Part shown: one piece after another, positions 3,216 to 22,199 of the stretch | Position numbering within the stretch: position 1 is the first letter of the stretch | Layout of the letters: each line of letters opens with the position of its first letter | Notes under the pieces: generated by a model | What the model saw: only the letters and a program-made list of their open reading frames with translations | Databases searched by the model: none | Told to the model about the DNA's origin: nothing | Position numbers and translations under genes: made by a program | Origin: Anaerolineae bacterium | GTDB lineage: Bacteria > Chloroflexota > Anaerolineae > Aggregatilineales > Phototrophicaceae | DNA: 23,590 nt | NCBI GenBank assembly: GCA_028284565.1 | Contig: JANQRM010000452.1 | Span: 1 to 23,590, forward strand | Direction of reading: 5' to 3'

Positions 3216-3387
3216 TGGCACGCCTCGCAAGACGTTCTCGCAGTTTTTCGCGTTGAATCAAGGCTCTACGACAAGCGATTAAGCTCTTTGTCTACGCTTG
3301 ACACTCTCGATAACTCTATCGCAAACGCTTTCCTGATTATCCTGCTCACCTCATGGCTTTCATATGACCGCCTATTTCCCCCACTCC

Positions 3388-6172: not shown

Positions 6173-6961
6173 TTATATAATGAGTTGATACATACATTGT
6201 TGTTGTAGGTGATGGAAGCGAATGTCTGGGAATTGGTGTCGCAGATGTTCAAATAAGGATTGAACACCGATAATTTCGCTCACAGGATGATTGACAACAA
6301 CCATTGCCAAATTCATATCAACGGCAAAGGCTCCATCGCGCCAATATTCAATGCCGTCGTCGGTGCAGATACCCAAATCTATATCATAATCTTTCACCCA
6401 ATCAATGAACGGTGAGATCGCCCCTGTTCCAATGCATAGACGCTTCACCATCTTCTCAGGGGCGCCGATTAACTGAACGGCTTGCTGACCATAAGGTTGG
6501 GTACAGTTTGCAACGTGCCGAGCAACGTCAAGTGCCGACCCGAAATCTTGTTCATAAACTCGGAAATGCTCGGTGACAATCGTTGGCTCGTGCCATTCAA
6601 ACAATTTGCCCCATGAGTCGGGGATACCTAGCACAGGATATTGATCCCAGAGGTCATGACAGCGAAAAATAATCAGGTTTTGTTCCTCAATAAAACGTTG
6701 CTTAGCTTGTACTGATTCAAAGCGTTGAATTTCAGCATCTGTATCAAAGTGATTATAGTAGGTCGGTTCATGTGTTATGAATACATTGCAACCCAATTCG
6801 ACTGCTTGCTCTAGTGCAGAGGTATAGCTCATCCAAGCGATGGCAACCCCTGTGATCTCTGTTTCTGGATTGCCTGATTTGAAAGTATCTACCGTATTGT
6901 CTGGATAGCTCCAATCACCGCTTAACGATTGTAAATAGGTTTGCAATTCAATTGCCTTCAT
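6173..6961 (-). CDS. Nif3-like dinuclear metal-centre protein (DUF34/NIF3)
   Basis: This 262-residue protein has the pattern of the Nif3/DUF34 family. H64 in FITHEPTYY and H102 with D103/D106 in CHDLWD form the first half of the metal site; H225 and E229 in VVNHPVSEIIG form the second half. These match the spaced His, Asp and Glu ligands of the two-metal centre in known structures. Family members form ring-shaped hexamers; their reaction is not settled. GTP cyclohydrolase annotations for the family are doubtful. The gene follows the CehA-like gene by 26 bases on the same strand, so the two are probably co-transcribed and may act on the same compound. A Nif3 protein inside a carbohydrate locus is uncommon. 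The start codon is the only ATG before the conserved N-terminal helix; its ribosome binding site is weak. Confidence 0.85.
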   Translation of the reverse strand: MKAIELQTYLQSLSGDWSYPDNTVDTFKSGNPETEITGVAIAWMSYTSALEQAVELGCNVFITHEPTYYNHFDTDAEIQRFESVQAKQRFIEEQNLIIFRCHDLWDQYPVLGIPDSWGKLFEWHEPTIVTEHFRVYEQDFGSALDVARHVANCTQPYGQQAVQLIGAPEKMVKRLCIGTGAISPFIDWVKDYDIDLGICTDDGIEYWRDGAFAVDMNLAMVVVNHPVSEIIGVQSLFEHLRHQFPDIRFHHLQQQCMYQLII

Positions 6962-6987
6962 AACAAGACTTTCATGAAATAAGTGGT

Positions 6988-9534
6988 TTAATGAGGAATG
7001 CCCAATTGATGCAGACGGCGATGCAGGATTTCGAGGGCTTGATGAAAGGGTTCTTCGAGATAAGCAATATGGTCGGAAAGATTATGAGCATGTGTGACCT
7101 GTTCAGGATGGTCATGTAAGGCGTGATTGCGAATATAGGACAGGTTGCCAGAAATGAGCGTCAGCATATATTGAATCGTCTCTGCATCGGCAAGTTGATA
7201 GTCTCTATCGCAGGCAATATAAATTGGTGAGGTATGTGCCATGATACCCCGTCGTCGCAGATCATAATGTCGTCGCGCTGTGTAATTGAGACCTGCACAA
7301 CGGGCGGCTAACCATGTGTTACCGTTAACTTTCACACGGAGATTGAGGCTTAACTGCTGACTCCCCTTCTTTTCTTGAGTTTCTGCAACGACCTGCCCTT
7401 CCTGAACAATCTGTAGAGTGTGGAGTGGAAAGATAGAAGAAGCACGTGCTTCAATTTCAACTGTCCCACCACCTTTGATGTTGAGCATACTCCCAATGGG
7501 CTGTCCATTGACCTTAAACCAGATGAGCGCACCCCCACTGACAAACGTGTTTCCACTTTGCAGGGCTTTACACCAATTGGTATAGGTGAATTCTTGATTG
7601 TGTGGAATGTGGGCATAGGTTCGGTAAAGTCCAACGGGTGTACTCGACGACATTTTATCTGTACCACCGACAAGCGGGAGTCGATAGCCAGCATTGAGAT
7701 AGCGATAATACTCCTGATGTTCAAAGGGCATGGAGTCCAGCATTTCTACAGCATCAGCGCGACCAGTGGCGATGAGCGTGGCAATTTCACCATTTGGTGT
7801 TGGGAAATGGGGTGCAATCACGAGTGCATCTTGTTTATGCGCTTCATCTGCCCAGTGACTGAGTGTCGTTTCTAGTGATCCACCCAGTTCAGCTTCTGGC
7901 GGTCCTCCACTGCCCCACGGCATGATGGGTGATTTTAAGCCCAATAAGCTCAGATGCCCTAAAATATGCTGGCGATTTTCTTGTGAGACATAGACGAGAG
8001 TTTGCTTATCGGAAGATTGATGGACATGTCCTGTAAATTCTTCTGTGTTGGTATACAAATGCCCCCACTGACTTTGCAGGAGATTGACAATCTGTAAATC
8101 TTCTCCCTGCGCTTCGTTCATCGCGCCCTGTGCAGAGAGAAAGTGAACGTGGGTGTCGGCACTATAATACCCCTCGGTTTTCATATCGAGGTGGCGTTTT
8201 AATGTCAATTGCAGATGGGTTTGACCGGGTTCAATTTGCACCCATTGTCGAATGGGTTCATATTCATAGCCGCGCGCAATATCCACTAGCACCTTTCCAC
8301 GTGGCAACCATCCTTGACAGGTACCATCTATATAAGCGTAGGTCATTTGCCCCAAGCGGACATCTCCGCCCACGTCGATATGCCATGTGCCAAAATTGGA
8401 GAATAAGGGCGCATGATGACCATGTGGTGCATAGGGAATCCCGTCTTCCGAATGGAAGGCAACTCGACAGGGAATTGGCTGGTTGGTCGCTTCATCAAGC
8501 ACTTCAACCTGCACCCAATTGCGTCCTGTTTCGATGCGCTCGATTCGGATGTGGGATGTTTCAACCTGCCCCGTTGCTTCGAGGTCACGCCACGCCACAG
8601 TGTCGATGACTTGTTCGTCACTTTTTATTGTTAAGGTTGCGGAGGGAATACCGGTGACTTTGGCATAAGCTGGGCTATTTGACTTGTTTTTGGGCGCACC
8701 ATAGCCCCACATGGATGGGTCTGCCTTGTCAAGTGGTGTCGCGGGTAAGGGATAGGTATAGGTCGCAATCCCTCGGTCAATTTCCACATCGAGATTGAAG
8801 GGTTGCTCTGCGGATTGGGAATCGAGGAGTGTAATTTTGATGGGCTGGACTGGCGTTTTCACCAAGGGATATTCGTCCTGATACCCAAGTGTTATGCCAC
8901 CAATCACAAATGTCTGCTCTTGGGGATGGATATGGATTGCTTGAATCACCTTCTGAGGGCTGGGGTTCTTCCATACCCAGATGTAGTAGCCCTGTGGTAA
9001 GGGGGTAATCACTTCTGTTTGACGTAATCCTGTATCTTGCCAATGTCCATCTGTACGGGGCAAGGTGGTGGCTTGCTGGTCAGGTACACTGAGGAAGGGA
9101 TCATGTCCCCATGGAAGTGGAACATTGCCGATTTCAAAACGTTCTCGGATACTCGTAGGAACACTCGTGTTATCGTCATATTGAAATTCATAACGGGCAA
9201 TCTCAACACCAAGGGGTCCGCCCTGCCAGAGTTTGGTTTCCAAGACCGCGTGAGCAAAGAGGAGATAATAAGCGGGTTTGTTCACAGATAACGTGACGGT
9301 TTCTTGATACAAGCCAACCCGACCAAAGCCCAGCAAACAAGACGAGAAATCAGGTGGTTCTGTCCCGATTAAGAAAGGCAGTCCATGGAACACTTGCTTG
9401 CCGATTGGCGGCTCTTTTGGACGGGGTTCAAGATAGGTTCCGCCAGATGTATAAGTTGCGGGATCATAGAGTGATACACCTGCATTACAATAGGCTGAGA
9501 GGTCAAGAGGTTCATAGTCAATCGGTGTGGACAT
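6988..9534 (-). CDS. CehA/McbA-family metallohydrolase with long N-terminal beta region
   Basis: This is a large protein of 848 residues. Residues 1 to about 340 look like beta-sandwich material without known motifs, and about 340-450 resemble a carboxypeptidase-regulatory-like fold (VQVEVLDEATNQPIPCRVAF). After that comes a PHP-type metallohydrolase domain of the CehA/McbA kind: YYSADTHVHF (H462, H464), a HILGH segment (H523, H527), IAPHFP (H576) and VGGTDK (D626). A C-terminal tail follows, with beta strands to about 770. The metal ligands appear complete, so it should be active. Named relatives cleave carbamates such as carbaryl, but most CehA-like proteins in sugar loci have unknown substrates. 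No signal peptide is present. It heads a two-gene operon with the Nif3-like gene and diverges from the GH31 gene across 112 bases. Confidence 0.83.
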   Translation of the reverse strand: MSTPIDYEPLDLSAYCNAGVSLYDPATYTSGGTYLEPRPKEPPIGKQVFHGLPFLIGTEPPDFSSCLLGFGRVGLYQETVTLSVNKPAYYLLFAHAVLETKLWQGGPLGVEIARYEFQYDDNTSVPTSIRERFEIGNVPLPWGHDPFLSVPDQQATTLPRTDGHWQDTGLRQTEVITPLPQGYYIWVWKNPSPQKVIQAIHIHPQEQTFVIGGITLGYQDEYPLVKTPVQPIKITLLDSQSAEQPFNLDVEIDRGIATYTYPLPATPLDKADPSMWGYGAPKNKSNSPAYAKVTGIPSATLTIKSDEQVIDTVAWRDLEATGQVETSHIRIERIETGRNWVQVEVLDEATNQPIPCRVAFHSEDGIPYAPHGHHAPLFSNFGTWHIDVGGDVRLGQMTYAYIDGTCQGWLPRGKVLVDIARGYEYEPIRQWVQIEPGQTHLQLTLKRHLDMKTEGYYSADTHVHFLSAQGAMNEAQGEDLQIVNLLQSQWGHLYTNTEEFTGHVHQSSDKQTLVYVSQENRQHILGHLSLLGLKSPIMPWGSGGPPEAELGGSLETTLSHWADEAHKQDALVIAPHFPTPNGEIATLIATGRADAVEMLDSMPFEHQEYYRYLNAGYRLPLVGGTDKMSSSTPVGLYRTYAHIPHNQEFTYTNWCKALQSGNTFVSGGALIWFKVNGQPIGSMLNIKGGGTVEIEARASSIFPLHTLQIVQEGQVVAETQEKKGSQQLSLNLRVKVNGNTWLAARCAGLNYTARRHYDLRRRGIMAHTSPIYIACDRDYQLADAETIQYMLTLISGNLSYIRNHALHDHPEQVTHAHNLSDHIAYLEEPFHQALEILHRRLHQLGIPH

Positions 9535-9646
9535 AAGGTATCATTCAACGGCAACAAGGTGTGTTTTTTATTCGTCAAAAGCAGAACGATTCGTCTAGTT
9601 TCGAGTGTACCCCATTATTTACATTTCGGCATGATTTGAGGACAAT

Positions 9647-12052: not shown

Positions 12053-12054
12053 TA

Positions 12055-13299
12055 TTAGGTTGCCATCCGAACAACCAGAGGCTCAGATGATGCACCTACC
12101 GAATGCACCCAATGACCGGAAAGATGATAAGTTTTATTGGGTTGCATAGTGCGAAAATGCTGTTGAAATAACACGCGGTCTCCTTGGCAAATCAACAGGA
12201 CAACCGATTTCAAGAATTGGGACACACGAAATGAGAACTTGCGCGCCATAGAAAGGTCGGAAATACAATTCGGCGTAATCCAATAGATTGGCTGTTTAAT
12301 GTGAATCGGTATAGGCTGTTTTACCCAGTTCCCTTCACTGAGATATTCTCGGATATGGAGAGCCGAGTGCCTGCCTTCCAGTGCGCTAATATCCGCAGTT
12401 TCTGCCCCATGTAAGAGATTCCCTGCCGCAAAAATTCCGGGAATTGATGTTCGGTATGCGGAATCGATACGTGGTCCTTTGGTGCCAATGTCAATCGTCA
12501 AGCCACCCCGACGCGCTAGTTCATTTTCGGGTATCCATCCCCCTGTAAACACCATTGTATCACAGTCGATTATGTCGGTTTCGCCAGTTTCCCTGTGGAT
12601 GATCTCCACCCCTTCAACCCGCCGTTTGCCAAAGATGTTGCTGATTTTGGCATTCGTTACAATCCCTGTTCGCGCGTAAGTATCCATCAACAACCAGCGA
12701 ATTGGGACATAGGGCAAATAGATTTGATGCTTTGGATACTCTGTTATCATCTTCGTGACTTTGACTCCCGCTTGTCGAAGTGTAATCAACGCAGACAGAC
12801 TGACCAACTCCGCACCCACGATGACAGCTTGTTTCCCAATCGGAAGGTGATGCTCATCCACAAAGCGTTGTAAAGAACCTGTCGTGAAAATGCCGGTTGG
12901 ACGACTACCGGGAATCAAGCGACTACTACGTGGACGTTCCCGACAGCCGGTTGCCAGTAGAACGGTTTGTGCTTCTATCGTACCGATTCCTTGTGGACTA
13001 GAGTAAGTCAGCGTGGTCGTATCGTCCCAACCCGTAATCGTCGTGGAGGTGCGGAGGGGAATATCTTTTTTGTAAATTTGTTGGACATAATATCGAGCAT
13101 AGCGCGGTCCACTTGTGGCACGATGCAAATCTCGCAAACCAAAACCGACATGATGGCAAAGTCGTGGAATACCGCCTGCTTCGGGTTCTCGCTCAACAAT
13201 CAGTACATCCTTCACACCCAGCTCATGCAGTTGAAGTGCCGCCGCCAACCCTGTGGGACCTGCCCCGACGATTAAGACCTTGACCTTTTCAACTGGCAT
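12055..13299 (-). CDS. FAD/NAD(P)-dependent oxidoreductase, partner of the GlpA-like oxidase
   Basis: This 414-residue pyridine-nucleotide-disulfide-type oxidoreductase has a first dinucleotide fold at the start (VLIVGAGPTGLAAALQ), an ATGCRERPR motif, an IPGSRPTGIFTTG turn, and a second FAD contact in SIPGIFAAGNLLHG. The signature matches the NAD(FAD) subunits found next to GlpA-like and opine-oxidase-like proteins. There it is thought to pass electrons between NAD(P) and the partner flavoprotein. The ATG lies inside the last codons of the preceding oxidase gene (11-base overlap), a strong sign of coupled translation. The small DUF1667-type third subunit of some glpK-glpA clusters is not found here. 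The last 60 residues are unlike the family core and contain no cysteine pair for an iron-sulfur site. Confidence 0.85.
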   Translation of the reverse strand: MPVEKVKVLIVGAGPTGLAAALQLHELGVKDVLIVEREPEAGGIPRLCHHVGFGLRDLHRATSGPRYARYYVQQIYKKDIPLRTSTTITGWDDTTTLTYSSPQGIGTIEAQTVLLATGCRERPRSSRLIPGSRPTGIFTTGSLQRFVDEHHLPIGKQAVIVGAELVSLSALITLRQAGVKVTKMITEYPKHQIYLPYVPIRWLLMDTYARTGIVTNAKISNIFGKRRVEGVEIIHRETGETDIIDCDTMVFTGGWIPENELARRGGLTIDIGTKGPRIDSAYRTSIPGIFAAGNLLHGAETADISALEGRHSALHIREYLSEGNWVKQPIPIHIKQPIYWITPNCISDLSMARKFSFRVSQFLKSVVLLICQGDRVLFQQHFRTMQPNKTYHLSGHWVHSVGASSEPLVVRMAT

Positions 13300-14710
13300 T
13301 AACCGTTTCCAAACCCATCAGCGAATAGGGATTCAAGCCTGCTTCCTTCACCATAAGATCGACCAACCGCGCCTGACAATTAAAACCCTGACACCGCCCC
13401 TGCAACGCACGTGTTCGCCGCCGCAAGCCATCGAGTGAGCGTGCTGGAATATCGCTCTGTAACGCATCCACAATCTCACCACGAGAGACTTGTTCACAGT
13501 GACAAACGATCTCTCCATAATCTGGATTTTGTTGGATGAGGTCATCGGATTGGAAGGGACGTGACGCGATCTGTCCAATATAGGGCATTTTGACCGATTC
13601 AAAATTGGCTTTGGCGTTGAGGCTTAATCCCGCATCGTCGAGCAATTCAAGGACATATTCGGCAATCCCCAAGCAGGCAGAGACACCCGTTGAGCGAATC
13701 CCGCCGACACAAATGTAGTGCTGGTCAGCATGGAGATGAATTTGGTAATCTGCATGTTCAGTCGCGGCACGTAAACCCGCATAGGTCGCAACGACTTCTT
13801 CTTGCACGAGTGCAGGTAAAATCGCCTCCCCTTTGTCCATCAGCATCGACAATCCCACTTCGCTGGTGCGCGTGTTCGATTTATCGAGCAAATCCTCAGC
13901 CGTAGGACCCAGCAACACATTGCCATACACAGTTGGGCTAATCAGCACCCCTTTTGTTATCGATGTCGGGACAGGCAGAATAATATGGTTAACGAGTGAC
14001 CGTGCCAATTTGTCAAAGACGATGAGTTCACCGCGACGTGGCGTGACCGTAAATTCATTGTGTCCCAGTTGGCGGTTGAGTTCATCCGCATATAATCCGG
14101 CAGCATTTACCAGATAATGACACGCAATATTTCCCGACGAGTTGTGTAAATAAATGACCCCATTTTTCGATTCCTCTATAGTCTGGACTGGGAAATTCAA
14201 GCGCGAGGTGACACCATTACGAACTGCCTGTGTTGCCAGTGCCAGTGGGATGGAGAAGGTACAGAGAATGCCCTCCCCCGGTACAAAGAGACCGCCCATT
14301 GCACCCGACTGCAAATGTGGTTCACGTGCTACAATCTCATCGGCACTGATGAGGTGAGCATCCGTGTCTCCGTTATGATGGGCGCGTTCTAGCAAGTGTG
14401 GAAGTTCTTCATATTGCTCGGCTGTCCATGCCACCAGTAACCCGCCAATCTCCTCAAAGGGAATGCCAGCTTGTGGCATATAGTCTTGATACAGTTCGTA
14501 ACTCCGTCGTAGCAATCGGGCTTCTAAGGTATTGGGCTTCGCGTCAAAACCCGTATGCCAGATAGCGGTATTGGCTTTGGATGTCCCAACGCCAACATCG
14601 TCTCCTGCTTCCACAAGGACACAATTCAGATCATATTGAGATAGGGCGCGCGCAATCGCACTGCCGACCACACCTGCACCCACCACTGCCACATCATAGA
14701 CCTTATCCAT
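13289..14710 (-). CDS. GlpA-like FAD-dependent oxidase with C-terminal BFD [2Fe-2S] domain
   Basis: This protein of the DAO (D-amino-acid/glycerol-3-phosphate oxidase) superfamily has about 473 residues. The FAD-binding GxGxxG is in VAVVGAGVVGSAIARAL at the start, and YICVGGIRSTGVSACLGIAEY is the second FAD contact. After about residue 395 comes a bacterioferritin-associated-ferredoxin-like domain with four cysteines (C403-H-C405 and C440-x4-C445 in CQGFNC). This layout is that of anaerobic glycerol-3-phosphate dehydrogenase GlpA and its relatives, which oxidise a phosphorylated polyol at the expense of another flavoprotein or quinone. I prefer ATG 14710, which overlaps the kinase stop by eight bases; ATG 14725 is possible but adds five non-conserved residues. 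Kinase, oxidase and partner oxidoreductase form one overlapping operon. Confidence 0.85.
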   Translation of the reverse strand: MDKVYDVAVVGAGVVGSAIARALSQYDLNCVLVEAGDDVGVGTSKANTAIWHTGFDAKPNTLEARLLRRSYELYQDYMPQAGIPFEEIGGLLVAWTAEQYEELPHLLERAHHNGDTDAHLISADEIVAREPHLQSGAMGGLFVPGEGILCTFSIPLALATQAVRNGVTSRLNFPVQTIEESKNGVIYLHNSSGNIACHYLVNAAGLYADELNRQLGHNEFTVTPRRGELIVFDKLARSLVNHIILPVPTSITKGVLISPTVYGNVLLGPTAEDLLDKSNTRTSEVGLSMLMDKGEAILPALVQEEVVATYAGLRAATEHADYQIHLHADQHYICVGGIRSTGVSACLGIAEYVLELLDDAGLSLNAKANFESVKMPYIGQIASRPFQSDDLIQQNPDYGEIVCHCEQVSRGEIVDALQSDIPARSLDGLRRRTRALQGRCQGFNCQARLVDLMVKEAGLNPYSLMGLETVNAS

Positions 14711-16199
14711 TGGGATTAACTTCATTTGAGTGGAAATGTTGAACGCTGGCTATCGCCTGTTGCCAACGAGCCAATCGCGTTTCTCGCTTGTGTTCAGGCA
14801 TCTGGGGTTGATAAGTTGTCTCCGCCTGCCATTGGGAACGTAATTCATCAAGTGAAATCCCGAAGGCTGTATGTCGCGCAAGATTAGCCATACCAATCGC
14901 TGTCGATTCATGCGCTTTGGCGACTTGAATCTCCACATTCAAAATGTCTGCCAGATACTGCATTACATAGGGGTTGGCACTGATTCCGCCATCGACCTTC
15001 AAATACGGTGGAGTCAGGTCGGTATCTGCAATCATGGCTTGAACCACCTCATAAACACGATGAGCAATCCCTTCAAGCGTCGCACGAACAATATCGGCTG
15101 GAGATGTCGCACGGGTTAAACCGAACATCGCTCCTCGAACTTCACTTTTCCAATAAGGAGCCGCCAAACCCGCCAGTGCAGGCACGACGACAACCGCCGC
15201 CGATTTGGATTGCTCTGCAACATCCGCACTTTCCTGTGGTGTCGATAAAAAATTCAGACTTTCCACCAACCATTGTACCGCCGCCCCCGTGACGAAGATA
15301 CCACCATCCAGCGCATAACTTCGCCGACCTACCAATTCCCAAGCGACTGTTGTTAACAACCCCTGATTGGACAATTGAGGCGTATCTCCAATGTTCATCA
15401 AGAGAAAACTACCCGTACCAAACGTACACTTCACATCCCCTTGTTGAAAACAAGCCTGCCCAAATAATGCCGCCTGCTGGTCAACTAATAAGCCGTACAA
15501 AGGCAACGTCATTCCATCAGCGAAAGGAACATCGCCATGTAAACTCGCCGAGGGTTGGATGTCGGGCAACAGGCTTCGGGGAATATCAAATAACTTGAGC
15601 AAGTCCTCGTCCCAATCAAAGGTGTGCATATTAAAGAGTAAGGTACGGGATGCGGTTGATGGGTCCGTGATATGCAATTGACCGCCTGTCAATTTCCAGA
15701 GGACCCATGTCTCCGTCGTCCCAAATAGAATATTGCCCTGTTCTGCCGCCTTCCGTAAATCTGGTTCCTCTTGAAAAACATACCGCAACTTGGGTGCAGA
15801 AAAATAACTATCCAGCAACAAGCCTGTTTTCTCGCGTAACCACATCTTGTCTATGTCCTGCGCGAGTTGGCTACAAATTTCAGCTCCACGCTTATCTTGC
15901 CAGACGATGGCGGGTGTCACAGGTTGTCCTGTAACTTTATCCCACAAGAGAAATGTCTCACCTTGATTATCAAACCCGAAGGCTTGAATGGGATAGGACT
16001 TCAACAAAGGTGTAACCGCTTCTTGAACCGTCTTCAAAATATCGTGAGGATTTTGCTCCACCCAACCGGGTCGCGGGAACTGTATCGGCACTTCGACACT
16101 GTTCTTTGCCACCAACGCCCCCGCTCCATCCAGCACAACCGCCGTGGTCTGGGTCGTACCCTGATCGATACCGAGAGTGTATAATGAGTGCTGATTCAT
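14703..16199 (-). CDS. FGGY-family carbohydrate kinase, glycerol-kinase-like
   Basis: This 498-residue kinase follows glycerol kinase along its whole length: phosphate-binding IDQGTTQTTAVVLDG (about 11-25), PGWVEQNP, AIVWQDKR, LFGTTETWVLWKLTGG, TDPSTASRTLLFN, DQQAALFGQ, CTFGTGSFLLMN and YLKVDGGISANPYVMQ. In glycerol kinases an Arg-Glu pair in the NQRET motif, a Tyr and an Asp hold glycerol. Here Glu (E81), Tyr (Y132) and Asp (D240) are kept, but the Arg is Gly (NQGET, G80). The preferred substrate may therefore be another polyol or a ketose; that is inference. I chose ATG 16199 because the conserved start begins just after it and GGGTGAAG lies in front; ATG 16223 would overlap the divergent gene. 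It is the first gene of a three-gene operon with overlapping ends. Confidence 0.87.
   Translation of the reverse strand: MNQHSLYTLGIDQGTTQTTAVVLDGAGALVAKNSVEVPIQFPRPGWVEQNPHDILKTVQEAVTPLLKSYPIQAFGFDNQGETFLLWDKVTGQPVTPAIVWQDKRGAEICSQLAQDIDKMWLREKTGLLLDSYFSAPKLRYVFQEEPDLRKAAEQGNILFGTTETWVLWKLTGGQLHITDPSTASRTLLFNMHTFDWDEDLLKLFDIPRSLLPDIQPSASLHGDVPFADGMTLPLYGLLVDQQAALFGQACFQQGDVKCTFGTGSFLLMNIGDTPQLSNQGLLTTVAWELVGRRSYALDGGIFVTGAAVQWLVESLNFLSTPQESADVAEQSKSAAVVVVPALAGLAAPYWKSEVRGAMFGLTRATSPADIVRATLEGIAHRVYEVVQAMIADTDLTPPYLKVDGGISANPYVMQYLADILNVEIQVAKAHESTAIGMANLARHTAFGISLDELRSQWQAETTYQPQMPEHKRETRLARWQQAIASVQHFHSNEVNPNG
16180..16185 (+). promoter_or_regulatory. Probable -10 box of the amidohydrolase gene, inside the kinase gene
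   Basis: A perfect TATAAT on the plus strand, preceded directly by TG, lies 36 bases before the amidohydrolase start codon. No good -35 hexamer is seen at 17 bases. It falls within the first codons of the divergent kinase gene, because only 22 bases separate the two start codons. Further on, GGAGA (16210-16214) serves as the ribosome binding site for ATG 16222. Confidence 0.5.
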
Positions 16200-16221
16200 C
16201 GCTTCACCCGGAGACTCTCGC

Positions 16222-17520
16222 ATGTCTGACTTGGCAATGCATATTCAGCAAACCCCCTTGAGTGATACGCATGAGCATTTGAGAAATGAACGTGATTTTA
16301 TCGACAATCCGCCTGATGTGTTGCAAAATCTCTTCGATAATTATGTGATTGATGATCTTGTGGTAGCAGGAGCGTCCATAGAAGCGGTTCAGGCATTGAT
16401 AAATCCCGATAGTACAGATATTGCGGAACGCTGGGTGGGCGTGGCGCATTATTGGCAATACGTTCAATATACAGGCTATGGACGGGCGGTTCAGTGGGTC
16501 GCCGAACACATCTACGGCATAACCCAACTCACGCCCTCCGCGATGGAAGCGACGACGGATGCGCTGAAAGCCCGCCAGCAATCGGGAGAACGCCTGCGAA
16601 TTTTGCGCGACGAAGCAAACCTGAGTCATGTGCAGACAGATAATTTCACTTGGGAATGCCTGCCCGATGCGTCGGGTCTTGACTTCTTCTTTTATGATTT
16701 GTCGTGGCTGAGCTATGCCAACGGACACATTGATCCAGTGGCAATTCATGAGGCAGTTGCAGTTGATGTTCATGATGTACCCACTCTCAAACAAGCCATG
16801 CAAGCTCTCTTCGCCAAATATGCACCCGTCGCCATTGCGGTGAAAACACAACATGCCTATGACCGCACCTTACACTGGTCAGCAAGAGACGAAAGCGATG
16901 TCGCCTCGCTCTTACAAAAATCCTTGCAAGGCACACCACTGACCCCCATCGAGCAACAGTGTCTAGGCGATTGGTGTTTGGGATTTGGGGTCGAACTTGC
17001 CATCGAATATCAACTCCCCATTAAAATACATACCGGTTACTATGCTGGTCATAGCCGAATGCCTCTCGATTGGATTCGTCCGTCCAACCTAGATGCCTTA
17101 TTGCGAGCCTATCCACAAGCCCGCTTTGTCTTGATGCACCTCGCCTATCCCTATCTGGACGAATTAATTGCACTGGCAAAACATTATCCCAATGTCTATG
17201 TCGATTTCTGCTGGGCTTGGAGCATTAATCCTTATTCTGCCAGCCAAGCCTTACGCCAGCTATTACATTCCGTCCCCATCAATAAGCTCTTCATCTTCGG
17301 TGGAGACTCCGATTTTCCCGATATTGTCCGCGCCTATGCCACCCAAACCCGCGATTGGCTGACCCGCACCCTACAAGCTGAAATAGACGACCAGCATCTT
17401 AGTGAACAACAAACCATTTCCATTGCCACACGCCTCATGCACAACAACCAGCACGACTGTTTTGATATCGACGGGACAAGGTTGGCAATTCATAAATCCA
17501 AATCAACTACTGACCGCTAA
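16222..17520 (+). CDS. Amidohydrolase-superfamily enzyme of unknown substrate
   Basis: This 432-residue TIM-barrel protein resembles the amidohydrolase-2 / uronate-isomerase-like group. The metal-binding pattern is visible in order: HxH after strand 1 (H17-E-H19 in LSDTHEHL), a possible lysine or histidine site (AVKTQHAYDRTLHW, K208/H211), H270 in IKIHTGYYAG, H306 in FVLMHLAYPY, and the aspartate of FGGDSDFPD (D362 or D364). A helical insert with several Trp and Tyr (about 70-100) may shape the substrate pocket. Relatives isomerise uronates, decarboxylate, or hydrolyse lactones and amides; I cannot choose between these. The gene diverges from the kinase and meets the permease gene tail to tail with a 14-base overlap. 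It is the only plus-strand gene between the transporter and kinase operons. Confidence 0.8.
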   Translation: MSDLAMHIQQTPLSDTHEHLRNERDFIDNPPDVLQNLFDNYVIDDLVVAGASIEAVQALINPDSTDIAERWVGVAHYWQYVQYTGYGRAVQWVAEHIYGITQLTPSAMEATTDALKARQQSGERLRILRDEANLSHVQTDNFTWECLPDASGLDFFFYDLSWLSYANGHIDPVAIHEAVAVDVHDVPTLKQAMQALFAKYAPVAIAVKTQHAYDRTLHWSARDESDVASLLQKSLQGTPLTPIEQQCLGDWCLGFGVELAIEYQLPIKIHTGYYAGHSRMPLDWIRPSNLDALLRAYPQARFVLMHLAYPYLDELIALAKHYPNVYVDFCWAWSINPYSASQALRQLLHSVPINKLFIFGGDSDFPDIVRAYATQTRDWLTRTLQAEIDDQHLSEQQTISIATRLMHNNQHDCFDIDGTRLAIHKSKSTTDR

Positions 17521-18364
17521 GTGCACCTGCTGTAATTCCTTTAATAAACTGCCGTTGGAAGAGAAAGTACACCACAATAATAGGCAAGAAGGAGATAGTC
17601 GCGCCTGCCATGAGCAAGGGAAAATCCGTCGAGAAACGTCCACGGAAGAAACTCAACCCCAATGGCAAAGTCCGTGCCGACTCCGATTGCAACAAAACAA
17701 CGGGTAACAAAAACTCATTCCAACTCCACATAAAGTCAAAGACCAACAGTGTCAACAAAGCGGGGCGCGTCAAGGGCAGGACGATATGAATCATCAAGGT
17801 GAAGTGGTTACAGCCATCCACCAGAGCTGCATCGAGTATTTCTCCAGGTATCTCTTGGATAAAACTCCGCAAGAGCAAGATTCCAAAAGGCAAGACAATC
17901 GCAATCTGAGGCAGGATAATCGCCCAGTGCGTATCCAACAGCTTCAAATCCAGCATCTCATAATAGAGGGGAATCACCAGCACCCCCAGCGGAATCGTCA
18001 AGCCGATTAAAAACAGCACAAACAGCACGTTCTTACCAGGGAACTGATACAACGCAAAGGAATAGGCGGCAAGCATCGAAAAAGTCAACACGCCCAGCAC
18101 CGTTGGCACAGCTACAAATATACTGTTCTTGAAGTATAACCCAAACTTACCAGTGTCCCATGCTTCAGGATAATTTTCCCATCGCAACACGGGTGGCGGA
18201 CCTAGCGGGTCACTGACCACTTCCTTGCGGGTTTTGAACGAGGTCGAAAGCACCCAGAACATCGGAATGACCACAACCAATGATAGAAATCCAGCCAATG
18301 CCGTGGTCATGACGGAATGTACCAGCTTGTTATGGCGGTATGAAGTCGATGATGCTACCGTCAT
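17507..18364 (-). CDS. Carbohydrate ABC transporter permease, MalG/UgpE-like
   Basis: This 285-residue inner-membrane permease of the CUT1 sugar importer class has six predicted membrane spans, the first at about 21-43 (ALAGFLSLVVVIPMFWVLST). The cytoplasmic EAA loop that contacts the ATPase reads ILDAALVDGCNHFTLM, followed by HIVLPLTRPALL. The start is ATG 18364, one base after the stop of the preceding permease, with AGGAAGG at the proper distance inside that gene. The open frame extends 40 codons further upstream, but those residues are not permease-like. It is the last gene of the gntR-led operon. With the upstream permease it forms the heterodimeric channel; the ATPase must come from elsewhere in the genome. 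Confidence 0.9.
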   Translation of the reverse strand: MTVASSTSYRHNKLVHSVMTTALAGFLSLVVVIPMFWVLSTSFKTRKEVVSDPLGPPPVLRWENYPEAWDTGKFGLYFKNSIFVAVPTVLGVLTFSMLAAYSFALYQFPGKNVLFVLFLIGLTIPLGVLVIPLYYEMLDLKLLDTHWAIILPQIAIVLPFGILLLRSFIQEIPGEILDAALVDGCNHFTLMIHIVLPLTRPALLTLLVFDFMWSWNEFLLPVVLLQSESARTLPLGLSFFRGRFSTDFPLLMAGATISFLPIIVVYFLFQRQFIKGITAGALSGQ

Positions 18365-18365
18365 A

Positions 18366-19259
18366 CTATCCTTCCTCAAAGTTGCCTCGTATCCAAAGGA
18401 GTAAAATCGACAAGACCAGAATAAACGCGCCGAGTGCAACCGCAATCGTGGAGCCATACCCCACATTATGGAAACTGAAGGCATTATTCAGCATGTGGAG
18501 AGGCAAGACCAACGACGAATTGGCGGGTCCGCCTCGTGTTAGCACGAAGACCAGATCAAATACTTGGAAAGAGAAAATCGTCGTGACCAACACGACCGTT
18601 GTCAATGGACCACGAATGAAGGGAAGCAGAATATGACGGAATTGTTGCCACCAATTGGCTCCATCAACCTTCGCTGCATCAAAATAGACCTCATCAATGT
18701 TGTCCAACGCAGCGATGAATATCACCATCGTAAAGCCATAGTGAATCCAGCTCCATGCGATAAACAACGCCCAGATTGCCAGCGACTTGTCACCCAGCCA
18801 AAGCTGTTGCAACTCCTCCAGACCCACACCACCAAGCAACTTATTCAATGCGCCATGTCGTGGCTCATAAATCCAACCCCAAATAATTGCAACGGTCACT
18901 GACGACAACACCTGTGGCAAAAAGTAAATCGTCCGAAACAGCACCTTCCCGTGCATCGGACTCCGGGACAGCATAATCGCCAGCATCAACCCAATGATTA
19001 CGGGTACGACAATGCCTCCGCCCATCCACAAGATGTTATTCTTAAATGCCAGCCAGAACAGCTCATCTTGCAACAACGAAGCATAATTTTCTAAGCCAAT
19101 AAACTCTCTCGGATTTAAACCATCCCATTTATGCAAGCTCAACCATACCAATTGCGTCGCCGGATACAGAAAAAACATGGCGTAAATGATGAACGCAGGC
19201 AAAATGTAGCCGTAGGCGATGAATTTATTCTTACGCCAATTTTGTGGCTTGGATTTCAC
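18366..19259 (-). CDS. Carbohydrate ABC transporter permease, MalF/UgpA-like
   Basis: This 297-residue permease has a short basic N-terminus (KSKPQNWRKNKF) followed by the first membrane span (GYILPAFIIYAMFFLYPATQ). The EAA loop is VYFDAAKVDGANWWQQF, then HILLPFIRGPL, typical of CUT1 importers for oligosaccharides and glycerol-3-phosphate-type substrates. The start is a GTG at 19259 with AAGG about nine bases in front. A 94-base gap with a stem-loop separates it from the binding-protein gene; the following permease starts one base after its stop. Short relatives of MalF lacking the large periplasmic insert, like this one, are the norm outside enterobacteria. Confidence 0.9.
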   Translation of the reverse strand: MKSKPQNWRKNKFIAYGYILPAFIIYAMFFLYPATQLVWLSLHKWDGLNPREFIGLENYASLLQDELFWLAFKNNILWMGGGIVVPVIIGLMLAIMLSRSPMHGKVLFRTIYFLPQVLSSVTVAIIWGWIYEPRHGALNKLLGGVGLEELQQLWLGDKSLAIWALFIAWSWIHYGFTMVIFIAALDNIDEVYFDAAKVDGANWWQQFRHILLPFIRGPLTTVVLVTTIFSFQVFDLVFVLTRGGPANSSLVLPLHMLNNAFSFHNVGYGSTIAVALGAFILVLSILLLWIRGNFEEG

Positions 19260-19296
19260 GTCTCAGACCTTGATGATAACGGAGTGATGAGAGTGA

Positions 19297-19328
19297 GGCT
19301 GGCAACCCTACCAATGGAATTGCCAACC
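19297..19328 (-). promoter_or_regulatory. Intercistronic stem-loop after the binding-protein gene
   Basis: On the minus strand GGTTGGCAA and TTGCCAGCC can pair as a nine-base stem with one G-U pair and a 14-base loop. There is no T-run after it, so it is not a classical terminator. Such hairpins between binding-protein and permease genes often protect the upstream mRNA and raise binding-protein levels. Confidence 0.45.
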
Positions 19329-19353
19329 TTAATAAAACTAGTTTGAGCAGACC

Positions 19354-20622
19354 TTATCCTTCCATAGCTTCGGCGGCTTGCTCTTCATAGACAGCTTGGA
19401 CATCTTGCATCGCTTGTTCAGGCGTGATGTCACCTGCGACCATTTCTTGCATCTTCGCCCATATCGTTTGTTGAACTTCTGGACTGATATTCCCTTCAAA
19501 CAAACCGGGACCTGACTGTTGCATCGCGCTGAAAATATCCACTTGCAGTTGATCCACGGCATCGGGCAATTCGTCAAATTGGAACGGGACAAGCAAACCA
19601 TTTTCCCAGAAGAACGCCATGTTTTCTTCACTGACCAGATAATCAATGAGATCGACAACAATATCAAGGTGTTCAGTGTTAGCGACGATGACGAAATCAT
19701 CATATGGTGTAAATCCACCCATATGATACGGTAAGTCAGGATTCATCGGCGGTGTACGGAAGAAACCCACTTCAAAATCGGCTAGACGGAAGTCGGCTTG
19801 AACCCATGTTCCACCGATATTCATCGCGGCTTCCTCATTCACAAACAAGTTATTGGCATCTACAAAGCTAGAAGCTAGCATATTCGGGTCCAGATAGCCT
19901 TTTTCTGTCCACTCGACAATCTTCTCTCCAGCTTCGATTAATCCCGGAGCAACATAACTGACCGTCGGGTCAAGCTGTTCCAATGCCAAGAGATGATCGT
20001 ATTCGATGTTAGTATGCACCAATTGCGACCAAACATGCTGGAGGGGCCACGCATCACGCCCGCCAACCGACACAGGGACATATCCAGCATCAAGGGTGGC
20101 TTGCATCACTGCCTCAAATTCCTCAATTGTTGTTGGAATTTCTAAGCCCAGTTCCTCAAAGATGCCTGTATTGTAATAAACACCTACACCTGTCCACTCA
20201 TATGGAATCCCATAGATTTCGTTTTCAAAAGGCATGTTGTTGACTTCGATGGCTTTTGGATCAAGGTTATCGAGCCAGCCACGCTCTTCCGCAATCGGTG
20301 CCAAATCAACGAGATGTCCAGCTTCGGCATAAAGCCATGTACCGACAGAGACAGGTGGTACGGTAGCGGAATCGGGTCCAGTTCCTCCATCAAGGGCTAA
20401 GGGCAAGGTACGGACCATATCTTCAAATGGAAAACCCACCAGCTCAATTGTCACGCCGGGATTTTCTGCTTCAAACCGATCAAACGCCTCGCGGAAAATG
20501 TCCAACGTTGCCGGAGCTTCCCCTTCAAACCAAAAGGTCAAGGTTACATCCTGTGCGCCAGCCACCAACGACGAAAAAAACAAAATCAGACTAATCAGAC
20601 AAGTAAAAAATGACTTTTTCAT
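19354..20622 (-). CDS. ABC transporter sugar-binding protein (CUT1)
   Basis: This 422-residue extracellular solute-binding protein of family 1 starts with a clear signal peptide: MKK, a hydrophobic stretch (FFTCLISLILFFSSLV) and AGAQD as a probable signal peptidase I site. There is no lipobox cysteine at the cleavage point. The mature part opens with VTLTFWFEGEAPATLDIFREAF, a typical family start, and contains YGIPYEWTGVGVYYNTGIFEELG, the usual hinge motif. GGGGGGAG six bases before ATG 20622 is a strong ribosome binding site. It is encoded 60 bases after gntR and ahead of the two permeases. The ligand is unknown; the linked GH31 enzyme suggests an alpha-linked glycoside. Confidence 0.92.
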   Translation of the reverse strand: MKKSFFTCLISLILFFSSLVAGAQDVTLTFWFEGEAPATLDIFREAFDRFEAENPGVTIELVGFPFEDMVRTLPLALDGGTGPDSATVPPVSVGTWLYAEAGHLVDLAPIAEERGWLDNLDPKAIEVNNMPFENEIYGIPYEWTGVGVYYNTGIFEELGLEIPTTIEEFEAVMQATLDAGYVPVSVGGRDAWPLQHVWSQLVHTNIEYDHLLALEQLDPTVSYVAPGLIEAGEKIVEWTEKGYLDPNMLASSFVDANNLFVNEEAAMNIGGTWVQADFRLADFEVGFFRTPPMNPDLPYHMGGFTPYDDFVIVANTEHLDIVVDLIDYLVSEENMAFFWENGLLVPFQFDELPDAVDQLQVDIFSAMQQSGPGLFEGNISPEVQQTIWAKMQEMVAGDITPEQAMQDVQAVYEEQAAEAMEG

Positions 20623-20653
20623 ATCATACTCCCCCCACTTGAATCAAAAAGAA

Positions 20654-20678
20654 CGAAAAAAATCAATTACCGTTGATT
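20654..20678 (-). terminator. Weak hairpin with T-run between gntR and the binding-protein gene
   Basis: On the minus strand AATCAA and TTGATT form a six-base stem with a six-base loop, followed directly by a run of T. The stem is all A-T except one pair, so read-through is likely. It might thin out transcription coming from gntR, or be chance. Confidence 0.3.
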
Positions 20679-20682
20679 GCTT

Positions 20683-21429
20683 TCATAGTCCCACCTTATA
20701 CTCTTCGGACTCGCGCTGACGTAAATTGGTTCGCGCAACGAAATGGCTACGGTCCCCCCGATAGATATCCCGCGCATATTCAATGGGTGTATCATCCATA
20801 TCAAATGCGACCCGTTTCACGAGCATCAATGGCTCACCGACCTCTATTTGCAAGGTGTCTGCCTCATACTCGTTGGCAACAATTGGCTCAAGGATGTTTT
20901 CTGCCATCTTTAAATGGATGTCATATTCTTCTTCAAGTAAGGTATAAATTGAGAGAGTTGTCAGGTCAAAACGATCGATATTCGGACAATGCTCAATTGG
21001 AAAATAGGAATTTTCGAGGGCAATCGGTTCGCCATTAGCTGTACGAAGACGATGAATATAGTAAAGCGGATGCCCGATAGTCACATTGAGCTTGTCTGCG
21101 AGTTTGATGTGTGCAGAAATCTTTTCAAGCTCTAGTAACTTCGCTCCCGGAATCAAGCCTTTTTTTCTCATACTCTCTGAAAAGCCCACCAACGTATCGA
21201 CTTGCTGTTCCAACTTGGGTTCTGCAATAAACGTCCCACTCCCTTGCCGTCGTTCCAAAATGCCTTCCCGATAGAGAACATTTAATGCGTGACGTACAGT
21301 CATCCGACTCACGCCGAGCTGTTCACTGAGTTTTCGTTCCGAGGGCAGTTGGTCGCCGGGTTGCAATAATCCAGATTCAATCTGGTTGATGATCGACTCA
21401 GAAATTCGAGAATAAACAGGCTTATCCAA
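20683..21429 (-). CDS. GntR-family transcriptional regulator, HutC subfamily (UTRA domain)
   Basis: The N-terminal winged helix reads RISESIINQIESGLLQPGDQ, LPSERKLSEQLGVSRMTVRHAL and GILERRQGSGTFIAEP. A UTRA ligand-binding domain follows, with IHRLRTANGEPIALENSYFP, then EPLMLVKRVAFDMDDTPIEYA and RDIYRGDRSHF at the end. I start it at TTG 21429 (248 residues, the usual HutC size). The longer frame up to 21543 would begin inside the inverted repeat of the IS1 element and cross the promoter and operator, so it cannot be the real start. The gene heads the transporter operon. A dre-like operator over its own promoter suggests that it represses this operon and is released by a sugar phosphate or the imported sugar, as in NagR/DasR-type regulators. 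Confidence 0.87.
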   Translation of the reverse strand: MDKPVYSRISESIINQIESGLLQPGDQLPSERKLSEQLGVSRMTVRHALNVLYREGILERRQGSGTFIAEPKLEQQVDTLVGFSESMRKKGLIPGAKLLELEKISAHIKLADKLNVTIGHPLYYIHRLRTANGEPIALENSYFPIEHCPNIDRFDLTTLSIYTLLEEEYDIHLKMAENILEPIVANEYEADTLQIEVGEPLMLVKRVAFDMDDTPIEYARDIYRGDRSHFVARTNLRQRESEEYKVGL

Positions 21430-21466
21430 AATAGATTGTCCAAAAAGTCTTTTCGCTAAATTGATA

Positions 21467-21482
21467 TAGTGGTCTATACCAA
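21467..21482 (-). promoter_or_regulatory. Probable GntR (dre-like) operator
   Basis: The minus-strand sequence TTGGTATAGACCACTA contains the near-palindrome TGGTATAGACCA, which fits the TGGTCTAGACCA core known for HutC-type regulators such as NagR (YvoA) and DasR. It overlaps the downstream end of the -10 box and the expected start of transcription, so binding should block RNA polymerase. I found no second copy elsewhere in the window by eye. Confidence 0.7.
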
Positions 21483-21510
21483 TATAAAGGAGAATTAGAC
21501 GATTTGTCAA
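21481..21510 (-). promoter_or_regulatory. Promoter of the gntR-ABC transporter operon
   Basis: On the minus strand a perfect -35 box TTGACA (21510-21505) and a -10 box TATATT (21486-21481) are separated by 18 bases. Transcription would begin near 21474, downstream of which the first usable gntR start is TTG 21429. The dre-like operator overlaps the -10 box. The IS1 end lies 16 bases upstream of the -35 box. Confidence 0.7.
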
Positions 21511-21526
21511 GCAATGAGTAATACAC

Positions 21527-21546
21527 GGAGTGGTGAATTTCATGGA
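21527..21546 (+). repeat. IS1-type terminal inverted repeat, left
   Basis: GGAGTGGTGAATTTCATGGA matches the inverted right repeat at 16 of 20 positions. It overlaps the last codons and stop of the transposase remnant. Confidence 0.65.
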
Positions 21547-22199
21547 TAGACAAAATCAATGAGGTGAGTGGGGTATTAGGGATAGCGTTGACGATATAAT
21601 TGTCGTCGGTTCCACGCAAAGACAAAGAGCTTGAGGGTGCGCTCCACGCGATGGGTTTCACGCTTATTCGGCATAGGCGTGTGCGTTCCGGGTGAATAAA
21701 TCAAGGTTTTGTAAGTGACAAACAGGTCACTATAGTACCAAATCGCTTGAGGACTGGCATCAAGGAGGGTTTGAAGATTGGCTTCATCTCGTTCCGGGGT
21801 GACACACCACCCAACAATGCAACTGTTGGCACTTTCAACGAATGTTACAAGGTAGTATCGGTTTTTTCTTGCCGACAAAAGTGTACAACTCATCCATTTC
21901 GACGGTATGCAGGGGCTTTTCAGCTGGCAAGGGAGCATCTGGCAACTGTACAGTACGAGCCTTCACCCAAATCATAATCGTGACTTGATCCACCCCTAGA
22001 TGACGGCAATCCGACGATAGCCAAGCCCATCGGCAGACAGCTTGACAGCTAGCTGGCGCGTTTCATCACTATACATTTGGCTTGGCTCTGGCGTGTAACG
22101 TCGCTGACAGGGTTTGCAGAGCATCCGTTGACTCCCCGCTCCTGTTTTGCCTGATTTAATCTTTTTTTCACTTGCTTGACAGTACGGACACTTGTTCAT
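21540..22199 (-). pseudogene. IS1-family transposase, frameshifted with internal deletion
   Basis: Reading leftward from ATG 22199, the first frame gives the InsA-like zinc finger (MNKCPYC with a later CKPC) and DGLGYRRIA, then loses frame at about 22014. A second frame continues RHLGVDQVTIMIWVKARTV and the first catalytic Asp (VEMDELYTFVGKK). At an A-run (about 21868) the frame changes again: NRYYLVTFVESANSCIVGW, the second Asp (YYSDLFVTYKT) and the catalytic Glu (THRVERT). Directly after this Glu the sequence jumps to LKLFVFAWNRRQLYRQRYP. The arm with the conserved basic helix (about 30-35 codons in relatives) is missing. An internal stop follows RYP before the final IDFVYP. The first break and the deletion cannot be rescued by the programmed frameshift that IS1 uses. 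Confidence 0.8.

What the first reader, a model, noticed from the sequence alone, without database searches (positions are those of the whole stretch)
6173..21510. Intact, regulated catabolic locus with an unusual gene set and unknown substrate
Ten genes form a plausible unit: GntR/dre control, CUT1 importer without ATPase, GH31 hydrolase, GlpK-like kinase, GlpA-like oxidase plus FAD/NAD partner, amidohydrolase, CehA/McbA hydrolase and Nif3. The sequence shows these families and their order. From family knowledge, GH31 releases alpha-linked sugars and the kinase/oxidase pair handles a polyol. My inference is a pathway for an alpha-glycosylated polyol (for example a glucosylglycerol-like compatible solute) or a related rare sugar. 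No described pathway that I know combines all these parts.
Basis: partly seen in the sequence, partly recalled or inferred. Interest (0 to 1): 0.72.

Follow-up and report, generated by a model that had tools for sequence, protein, structure and literature searches.

The report
Glycerol-kinase-like operon for another substrate
This stretch of bacterial DNA is a real, conserved nutrient-breakdown locus whose core kinase and oxidase look like the glycerol pathway but carry matched changes at substrate-contacting positions and sit beside ethanolamine genes in some relatives, so they probably handle a different small molecule, perhaps an amino alcohol.

Summary
In detail: window 6173-21543 carries eleven intact genes of the named families. 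The would-refute test does not refute. One other genome (G316, Anaerolineae class) has CehA, reductase, oxidase, kinase, amidohydrolase and one permease on one contig; GntR, binding protein and second permease lie on another, behind an identical operator. GH31 is not shown to belong: it was not found in G316. The kinase is a paralogue of glycerol kinase with Gly where glycerol kinases have the glycerol-contacting Arg83; 11 of 11 genomes with this type also keep an ordinary copy. The neighbouring oxidase switches signature in step: 21 Gly/GIRSTG pairs, 5 Arg/GIESPG, none mixed. The core recurs in Streptomyces and Proteobacteria. Neighbours in part of these loci are APC permeases, EutABC, EutBC, EutH and, once, a choline/ethanolamine-kinase-family protein in the kinase's place. 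Best reading: phosphorylation and oxidation of a small amino alcohol, here with a sugar-type importer and two hydrolases. The substrate is inferred, not shown; no eut gene was seen among the window genes scanned, and no EutB in G316.

The parts
6173..6961 (-). Nif3/DUF34-family protein, 262 aa
   Evidence: PF01784 58.7 bits; 56-58% orthologue directly after CehA in 6 of 6 loci L001-L006; 52% orthologue beside a CehA copy in G316
6988..9534 (-). CehA/McbA-family metallohydrolase, 848 aa
   Evidence: NF038032 158.8 bits, cut-off 80; 1960 relatives among 7997 candidates scored; 62% copy next to the core in L132
9647..12052 (+). GH31 alpha-glucosidase-type hydrolase, 801 aa; membership in the unit not shown
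   Evidence: PF01055 428.8 bits; MalA model is the best but under its cut-off; not found in G316
12055..13299 (-). FAD/NAD(P) reductase, probable partner of the oxidase, 414 aa
   Evidence: PF07992 88.8 bits; next to or fused with the oxidase in relatives
13289..14725 (-). DAO-type flavin oxidase with C-terminal BFD [2Fe-2S] domain, GIRSTG type
   Evidence: PF01266 213.5 and PF04324 40.6 bits; motif comparison and tree
14703..16199 (-). FGGY kinase, glycerol-kinase paralogue of the Gly83 type (frame listed to 16223; probable start 16199)
16222..17520 (+). Amidohydro_2 TIM-barrel hydrolase, 432 aa, divergent from the kinase with about 22 bases between the starts
   Evidence: PF04909 71.5 bits; metal-ligand-like His and Asp invariant in 19 rows; same layout in L132, 53%
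17507..18364 (-). CUT1-type permease (GlcU/UgpE-like); frame listed to 18484, probable start 18364
   Evidence: PF00528 74.8 bits; 73% in L132; 53-59% in L001-L006
18366..19259 (-). CUT1-type permease (GlcT/UgpA-like)
   Evidence: PF00528 56 bits; 72% in L206; 58-61% in L001-L006
19354..20622 (-). Extracellular solute-binding protein (signal-peptide-like start, read by eye)
   Evidence: PF01547 104.6 bits; nearest solved relatives are chitin-oligosaccharide binders NagB2 and NagB1; orthologues in 2 of 396 class genomes at E<=1e-70: G316 at 74% and G002 at 49%
20683..21429 (-). GntR-UTRA regulator (frame listed to 21543; probable TTG start at 21429)
   Evidence: PF07702 140 and PF00392 82.8 bits; nearest solved relatives YvoA and DasR; 62% in L206
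21470..21481 (.). Palindrome TGGTCTATACCA, probable operator just upstream of GntR
   Evidence: only exact match of TGGTNTANACCA in the window; identical site in front of GntR in G316

Best explanation
The locus is one conserved catabolic unit of a Chloroflexota bacterium, joined from two parts that also exist apart.

Part 1 is a core of GntR, FGGY kinase, flavin oxidase and FAD/NAD reductase. This core is a parallel version of the glycerol pathway for another substrate. The kinase phosphorylates a small molecule. The oxidase then removes two electrons from the carbon next to the phosphate-bearing CH2 group and passes them through its [2Fe-2S] domain to the reductase. The substrate is most likely a small amino alcohol, such as ethanolamine or a C2-C3 relative. 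It would be oxidised as its phosphate to an aldehyde or ketone phosphate, with release of ammonia.

Part 2 is a CUT1 importer with an amidohydrolase, a CehA/McbA hydrolase and Nif3. It would import a larger conjugate and cut out the core's substrate.

Shown: the gene set, its conservation in one other genome, the identical palindrome, the paired kinase/oxidase signatures and amine-related neighbours in part of the relatives. Inferred: the substrate, the reaction, the roles of the hydrolases, and any part played by GH31.
For: Unit: in G316, L132 holds CehA 62%, reductase 55%, oxidase 66%, kinase 62%, amidohydrolase 53% and permease 73%, with the same kinase(-)/amidohydrolase(+)/permease(-) layout. 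L206 holds permease 72%, binding protein 75% and GntR 62% behind the identical 12-base palindrome.

Kinase: 12 of 12 members (window plus 11 genomes) have Gly at the Arg83 position and Asp and Gly at the Glu306 and Ser308 positions, against 19 of 19 ordinary copies with Arg, Glu and Ser; 11 of 11 genomes with the Gly type also have an ordinary copy. All 120 listed database rows, one of them the window's own, are Gly type (the list is the top 120 of 8000 scored). In a tree of 42 kinases the two types part at one branch, SH-aLRT 99. Thirteen further kinases from L118, L154 and plasmids also have Gly there, 13 of 13. Arg83 hydrogen-bonds glycerol and is part of a signature reported as identical among glycerol kinase clusters (PMC3245297, passages).

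Pairing: 21 Gly/GIRSTG, 5 Arg/GIESPG, 0 mixed among neighbours within 2.5 kb; 46 loci were given.

Amine context: EutA, EutB, EutC and a BMC protein with APC permease, kinase and oxidase in L134 and L135; EutBC in L197 and EutH in L199; a choline/ethanolamine-kinase-family protein directly before the oxidase in L195 and others within about 4-7 kb of the kinase in L139 and L140. EutB is in 6 of 19 core-bearing genomes against 14 of 199 in a class draw (Fisher p 0.0035).
Against: No amine gene is among the 20 window frames scanned, and G316 has no EutB, so the amine reading is carried over from relatives. EutB is absent from 13 of the 19 core-bearing genomes. The window's importer is of a sugar type. 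The four residues that I recall as catalytic in type 2 glycerol-3-phosphate oxidase (His, Lys, Arg, Ser) are kept in the rows shown, so glycerol 3-phosphate is not excluded for the oxidase. Seven loci pair the oxidase with a phosphoesterase and no kinase, which also fits glycerophosphodiesters. Where EutBC is present, a second route for ethanolamine itself would be redundant. The loss of Glu306, a reported salt-bridge partner of Arg83 (PMC2680290, passages; mapped here by motif), is not general: 6 of 11 plasmid kinases keep Glu. The protein before the oxidase in L195 scores higher as APH (58.3) than as choline kinase (46.6). APC permeases were seen in 6 of 12 GIRSTG-type plasmid loci opened; in L193, L200 and L201 no amine gene stands out. 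The sequences are related, so the 21 pairs are not 21 independent events; the EutB test does not correct for kinship, and the two groups share genomes.
Confidence: 0.45

Rival explanations
1. Glycerophosphodiester or phospholipid head-group pathway. The oxidase is a glycerol 3-phosphate oxidase fed either by a phosphodiesterase or by the kinase. The ethanolamine genes nearby handle the other half of the molecule.
For: Seven kinase-less loci have GntR and a metallophosphoesterase beside the oxidase, with genes of a Pot-type ABC importer where the contig reaches far enough (L124, L125, L127-L131; the phosphoesterases of L124 and L131 typed by Pfam). Recalled catalytic residues of glycerol-3-phosphate oxidase are kept. 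The phosphoesterase resembles SpdA and cyclic-AMP phosphodiesterase models, below their cut-offs.
Against: It does not explain why the kinase lacks Arg83 while each of the 11 genomes keeps an ordinary glycerol kinase, nor why a choline/ethanolamine-kinase-family protein stands in the kinase's place in L195.
Confidence: 0.22
2. One reading: uptake of an alpha-glycosylated polyol, cut by GH31, with the aglycone phosphorylated and oxidised.
For: CUT1 importer with a sugar-oligomer-like binding protein and an intact GH31 of alpha-glucosidase type beside the core. Loss of Arg83 could make room for a substituted glycerol (inference). A 34-codon stub starts just behind the operator in G316 and lines up start to start with the window's GH31.
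Against: That stub match is weak: 19 of 300 shuffles score as high, and CehA and RidA do better against their shuffles (5 and 7 of 300); tblastn of the stub against plasmids gave no GH31. GH31 was not found in G316, and no GH31 hit lies in the 18 class loci around the core, several of them short.
Confidence: 0.15
3. Two unrelated cassettes that happen to lie together: importer/hydrolases with one job, kinase/oxidase with another.
For: Both parts occur apart: CehA-Nif3-importer in L001-L006 without kinase; no window-type importer gene in 17 of the 18 class loci around the core, several of them short.
Against: The interleaved order kinase(-)/amidohydrolase(+)/permease(-) and the palindrome are kept in G316 at 53-75% protein identity.
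Confidence: 0.13
4. The kinase is still a glycerol kinase that has drifted; the locus is an ordinary second glycerol operon.
For: Glycerol-kinase models score it highest and databases name many of its relatives glycerol kinase.
Against: The change is fixed in the members aligned, paired with a change in the oxidase, and an ordinary copy co-exists in 11 of 11 genomes checked.
Confidence: 0.05

Closest known systems
GlpK plus GlpA/GlpB-type glycerol pathway (kinase, DAO/BFD oxidase, FAD/NAD partner, DUF1667)
   Same: Same protein families and reaction logic: phosphorylate, then oxidise beside the phosphate, electrons to a second flavoprotein (logic recalled)
   Different: Gly for Arg83 in the kinase, GIRSTG for GIESPG in the oxidase; DUF1667 detected in 6 of 9 GIESPG stretches but 2 of 37 GIRSTG stretches (stretches differ in length)
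Ethanolamine utilisation (eut) loci
   Same: EutABC, EutBC or EutH share loci with the same core in L134, L135, L197 and L199
   Different: No eut gene among the window frames scanned. Kinase/flavin-oxidase steps are not among the pathways named in the passages I saw of PMC5821096, PMC9397018 and PMC6529630
Erythritol pathway (FGGY kinase EryA; the EryB oxidase is recalled, not looked up)
   Same: FGGY kinase followed by a GlpD-like flavin oxidase (recalled)
   Different: EryA is reported only in Alphaproteobacteria (PMC3245297, passage); not compared by sequence here
Glucosylglycerol use
   Same: Sugar-type importer and an alpha-glucosidase family enzyme
   Different: GH31 not shown to be a conserved part; kinase not of the glycerol type

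Membership tests
Glycerol kinase (GlpK) | Signature Arg83, Glu84, Tyr135, Asp245, Phe270 (PMC3245297) | tested here: not met
   Glu84, Tyr135, Asp245 and Phe270 present, Arg83 replaced by Gly in 12 of 12 members and 13 of 13 further ones
Glycerol kinase (GlpK) | Score over the NCBI equivalog cut-off TIGR01311 | tested here: not met
   548.6 against 590.35; the broader PRK00047 subfamily cut-off is met, 564.7 against 498
Glycerol kinase (GlpK) | Phosphorylates glycerol | not testable with these tools
   needs an assay
Type 2 glycerol-3-phosphate oxidase / GlpA | NCBI equivalog cut-offs | tested here: not met
   NF033460 252.8 against 460; TIGR03377 120.3 against 552.8
Type 2 glycerol-3-phosphate oxidase / GlpA | Catalytic His, Lys, Arg, Ser (positions recalled, no paper found) | tested here: met
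   kept in the alignment to the solved oxidase 4x9m and in the rows shown
Ethanolamine utilisation locus | EutB/EutC present | tested here: not met
   none among the 20 window frames scanned; no EutB in G316
CUT1 sugar importer | Binding protein plus two MalF/MalG-type permeases; ATPase may be shared (recalled) | tested here: met
   no ATPase found in the window frames scanned
NagR/DasR-type GntR regulator | GntR plus UTRA domains and a dre-like palindrome in front (dre consensus recalled) | tested here: met
   binding itself not tested
GH31 alpha-glucosidase MalA | NF040948 cut-off 800 | tested here: not met
   536.9 bits; GH31 family membership itself is clear

The most novel reading that the evidence does not exclude
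A widespread, often mis-named bacterial pathway that breaks down amino alcohols without B12: a glycerol-kinase paralogue makes the phosphate ester, a Glp-like flavin oxidase deaminates it, and the aldehyde or ketone phosphate enters central metabolism. The window adds an importer and hydrolases that would release the amino alcohol from a larger conjugate.
Probability: 0.3. Interest if true: 0.8.

Novelty: new variant of a known kind. Interest (0 to 1): 0.6.

Why it matters
Genes of this type are often named glycerol kinase. One position separates them from the ordinary glycerol kinases aligned here and goes with the type of oxidase beside them, so many annotations could be re-examined cheaply. 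If the substrate is an amino alcohol, it adds a further bacterial route for lipid head-group nitrogen beside the eut and gamma-glutamyl routes, and makes the question testable with two purified enzymes. For the window it replaces an unknown substrate by a short, ordered list of candidates.

Tried and rejected
Glucosylglycerol: downgraded because GH31 was not found in the one syntenic genome and the kinase lacks Arg83.

Arg83-Glu306 as a co-varying pair: holds in the 31 class and phylum kinases, but not in general; 6 of 11 plasmid kinases have Gly83 with Glu kept. Only Ser308 is lost in all 13 of that set.

RidA (5696-6085) as an imine-handling part of the locus: not claimed. It lies beyond Nif3 on the other strand, behind what reads by eye like the end of an acyl-CoA ligase.

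CehA alone as an anchor: 74 of 80 loci kept show CehA and no other window gene at E<=1e-8, so CehA is uninformative by itself.

Amidohydrolase as an anchor: found in 3 of 56 genomes of the order at E<=1e-100 (one is G316); in the other two (L152, L153) no other window gene lies within the 20 kb opened.

Completing G316: contig L211 (Nif3 and the CehA N-terminus) and L132 overlap end to end by 570 bases at only 83% identity. I did not treat them as one contig, so Nif3 is not proven to be in that locus.

Operator elsewhere: among the 140 loci held an exact match occurs only in L017 and L113; in L113 it lies upstream of a GntR of another type, so I make nothing of it. Of ten GntR loci scanned, L206 has an exact site, L154 and L127 have sites with 2 mismatches, the rest 3 or more.

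First scan of genome contigs with the single CehA sequence found nothing; the alignment A1 then worked. Rfam: no match at gathering thresholds.


Full report
What is there. Between 6173 and 21543 lie eleven intact genes: Nif3, CehA/McbA, GH31, FAD/NAD reductase, DAO/BFD oxidase, FGGY kinase, Amidohydro_2, two CUT1-type permeases, a solute-binding protein and GntR-UTRA. The flanks hold partial genes: a transposase piece, a protein-kinase-like piece (under the Pfam cut-off), a truncated response regulator and a short-chain-dehydrogenase piece. No whole genome is held for the window, so relatives had to carry the analysis.

Is it one unit? An alignment of CehA relatives found 281 relatives in genome contigs, of which the best 80 were kept. 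Six of the 80, all labelled Chloroflexi or Anaerolineae, have CehA-Nif3-binding protein-permease-permease-amidohydrolase in a row (26-32% for the amidohydrolase, 49-62% for the others); 74 show CehA only. So an importer/hydrolase cassette exists without the kinase. Searching the oxidase in 396 genomes of the class of one of these (G002) gave 18 close relatives at 60-68% identity; at most four candidates per genome were scored, so this is a lower bound. Their neighbourhoods show that kinase, oxidase and reductase travel together: nine of 18 have the kinase adjacent. One, G316, has CehA, reductase, oxidase, kinase, amidohydrolase and permease in one contig (L132), with the window's divergent kinase/amidohydrolase layout. 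The binding protein is rare, 2 of 396 genomes at E<=1e-70. Its G316 copy sits with the second permease and GntR behind the same 12-base palindrome as in the window. I read this as the same locus in a distant relative, broken over contigs. GH31 was not found there. A 34-codon stub behind the operator might be its start, but the match is not significant.

The kinase is not an ordinary glycerol kinase. It scores over the broad glycerol kinase model but under the equivalog cut-off. Published work lists Arg83, Glu84, Tyr135, Asp245 and Phe270 as the signature that contacts glycerol and calls it identical among glycerol kinase clusters (PMC3245297, passages). The window keeps four and has Gly for Arg83. 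Among 31 kinases from the class and phylum the split is complete: 12 of 12 (window plus 11) have Gly, with Asp and Gly at the positions that I map by motif to Glu306 and Ser308; 19 of 19 ordinary copies have Arg, Glu and Ser. Every one of the 11 genomes with the Gly type also has an ordinary copy (the script labels the last position S307). All 120 listed database rows are Gly type, the window's own included. A tree of 42 kinases needs one change, SH-aLRT 99; one ordinary copy, L090, has a very long branch, and the plasmid kinases are not in that tree. A structure paper reports an Arg83-Glu306 salt bridge (PMC2680290, passages). The loss of both partners together is not general: of 11 plasmid kinases, all with Gly83, 5 have Asp and 6 keep Glu.

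The oxidase changed in step. It keeps the catalytic residues that I recall for type 2 glycerol-3-phosphate oxidase, but differs in the loop after the conserved Arg and at the conserved Ser: GIRSTG instead of GIESPG. Where kinase and oxidase are neighbours, 21 pairs are Gly/GIRSTG, 5 are Arg/GIESPG and none is mixed; 46 loci were given, 19 lacked one gene or motif and one Gly/GIRSTG pair (L154) lay 4.1 kb apart and was left out of the count. DUF1667, a neighbour of this oxidase in two Clostridia loci, one of them with a glycerol-3-phosphate antiterminator, is found in 6 of 9 GIESPG and 2 of 37 GIRSTG stretches. A tree of 47 oxidases puts the nine GIESPG rows on one side of a branch, SH-aLRT 100; the GIRSTG rows need not be a clade. 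These rows were found by similarity to the window, so they are not an even sample.

What the neighbours say. In Chloroflexota relatives: an APC permease beside the kinase in six of nine kinase loci (L134, L135, L137-L140); EutA, EutB, EutC and a BMC protein around the core in L134 and L135 (in L134 EutA scores under the NCBI equivalog cut-offs but is 74% like the L135 one); choline/ethanolamine-kinase-family proteins and a HAD hydrolase near L139 and L140; GntR and a phosphoesterase, with Pot-type importer genes where the contig allows, instead of the kinase in seven loci. In the plasmid collection 24 records have relatives of the Streptomyces oxidase at E<=1e-60; I opened 15 of the 24. Twelve are GIRSTG: L191 and L192 Streptomyces, L193 Roseomonas, L194 Ensifer, L195 Mesorhizobium, L196 Agrobacterium, L197 Chelatococcus, L198 Paracoccus, L199 Pseudomonas, L200 Tistrella, L201 Rhizobium, L202 Roseateles. 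Six of these have an APC permease (L191, L192, L194, L196, L199, L202; in L192 and L194 by tblastn at 33% and 26%). L197 has EutBC, L199 has EutH, L198 has a glutamine-synthetase-family gene with aldehyde and alcohol dehydrogenases. L195 has a choline/ethanolamine-kinase-family protein in front of the oxidase (APH 58.3 bits, choline kinase 46.6) and no FGGY kinase in the stretch. L193, L200 and L201 show no amine gene that stands out; L201 is thinly annotated. Three are GIESPG (L203-L205), two of them with DUF1667. EutB occurs in 6 of 19 core-bearing genomes and in 14 of 199 genomes of a class draw (p 0.0035; the groups share genomes and kinship is not corrected).

How it most likely works. 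Shown: gene content, joint conservation in one genome, palindrome, paired signatures, context. Inferred: the kinase phosphorylates a small amino alcohol (loss of a positive residue while Glu84 stays suits an ammonium group); the oxidase takes two electrons next to the phosphate-bearing carbon; the BFD domain and the reductase carry them on; CehA and the amidohydrolase cut a conjugate brought in by the CUT1 importer; GntR, close to YvoA and DasR, senses a phosphorylated intermediate. The main doubt is that no amine gene was seen in the window and the importer is of a sugar type. The chief rival is a glycerophosphodiester pathway with a true glycerol-3-phosphate oxidase.

Compared with what is known. 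Same logic as GlpK-GlpA/B, different signatures, so filed as a new variant and not as glycerol catabolism. The passages I saw of three ethanolamine papers (PMC5821096, PMC9397018, PMC6529630) name eut, amination, gamma-glutamylation and biosynthetic routes, no kinase/flavin-oxidase route. My ten paper searches brought up no description of this operon in their listings; the library lacks most subscription journals. The last search used Pseudomonas gene numbers that I recalled.

Noticed in passing
window 5696-6085: Intact RidA/YjgF-family gene (PF01042) next to Nif3 on the other strand, behind what reads by eye like the end of an acyl-CoA ligase (5408-5692)
   Followed up: no
window 1042-2481: Intact gene of the beta-lactamase superfamily (PF00144 serine hydrolase)
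   Followed up: no
window 594-1022, 3009-3434, 4247-4819, 22756-23118: Flanks hold partial genes (transposase, protein-kinase-like, response regulator, short-chain dehydrogenase), so the intact locus sits in partly decayed DNA; the frame 21576-21938 matched no family
   Followed up: partly
L007-L080: CehA/McbA relatives at 51-58% are common in Poribacteria, Latescibacterota and others, sometimes two loci in one genome, with no other window gene detected
   Followed up: partly
L124, L125, L127-L131: A kinase-less version of the core: GntR, metallophosphoesterase, Pot-type ABC importer genes, oxidase, reductase (as far as each contig reaches)
   Followed up: partly
L135 and L137-L140: Oxidase and reductase appear as one fused open frame of about 790-920 aa
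   Followed up: partly
L196, L199, L202: DUF1937 protein recurs beside the core in Proteobacteria
   Followed up: no
L196 12989-14994: Fructose-bisphosphate aldolase and fructose-bisphosphatase next to the APC permease and kinase; could act on an aldehyde or ketone phosphate product
   Followed up: no
L133 6905-7789: A small (294 aa) CehA/McbA-domain protein divergent from the same kinase core
   Followed up: no
L211 1-570 and L132 1-570: End-to-end overlap of two contigs of one genome inside CehA at 83% identity; two copies or strain mixture
   Followed up: partly
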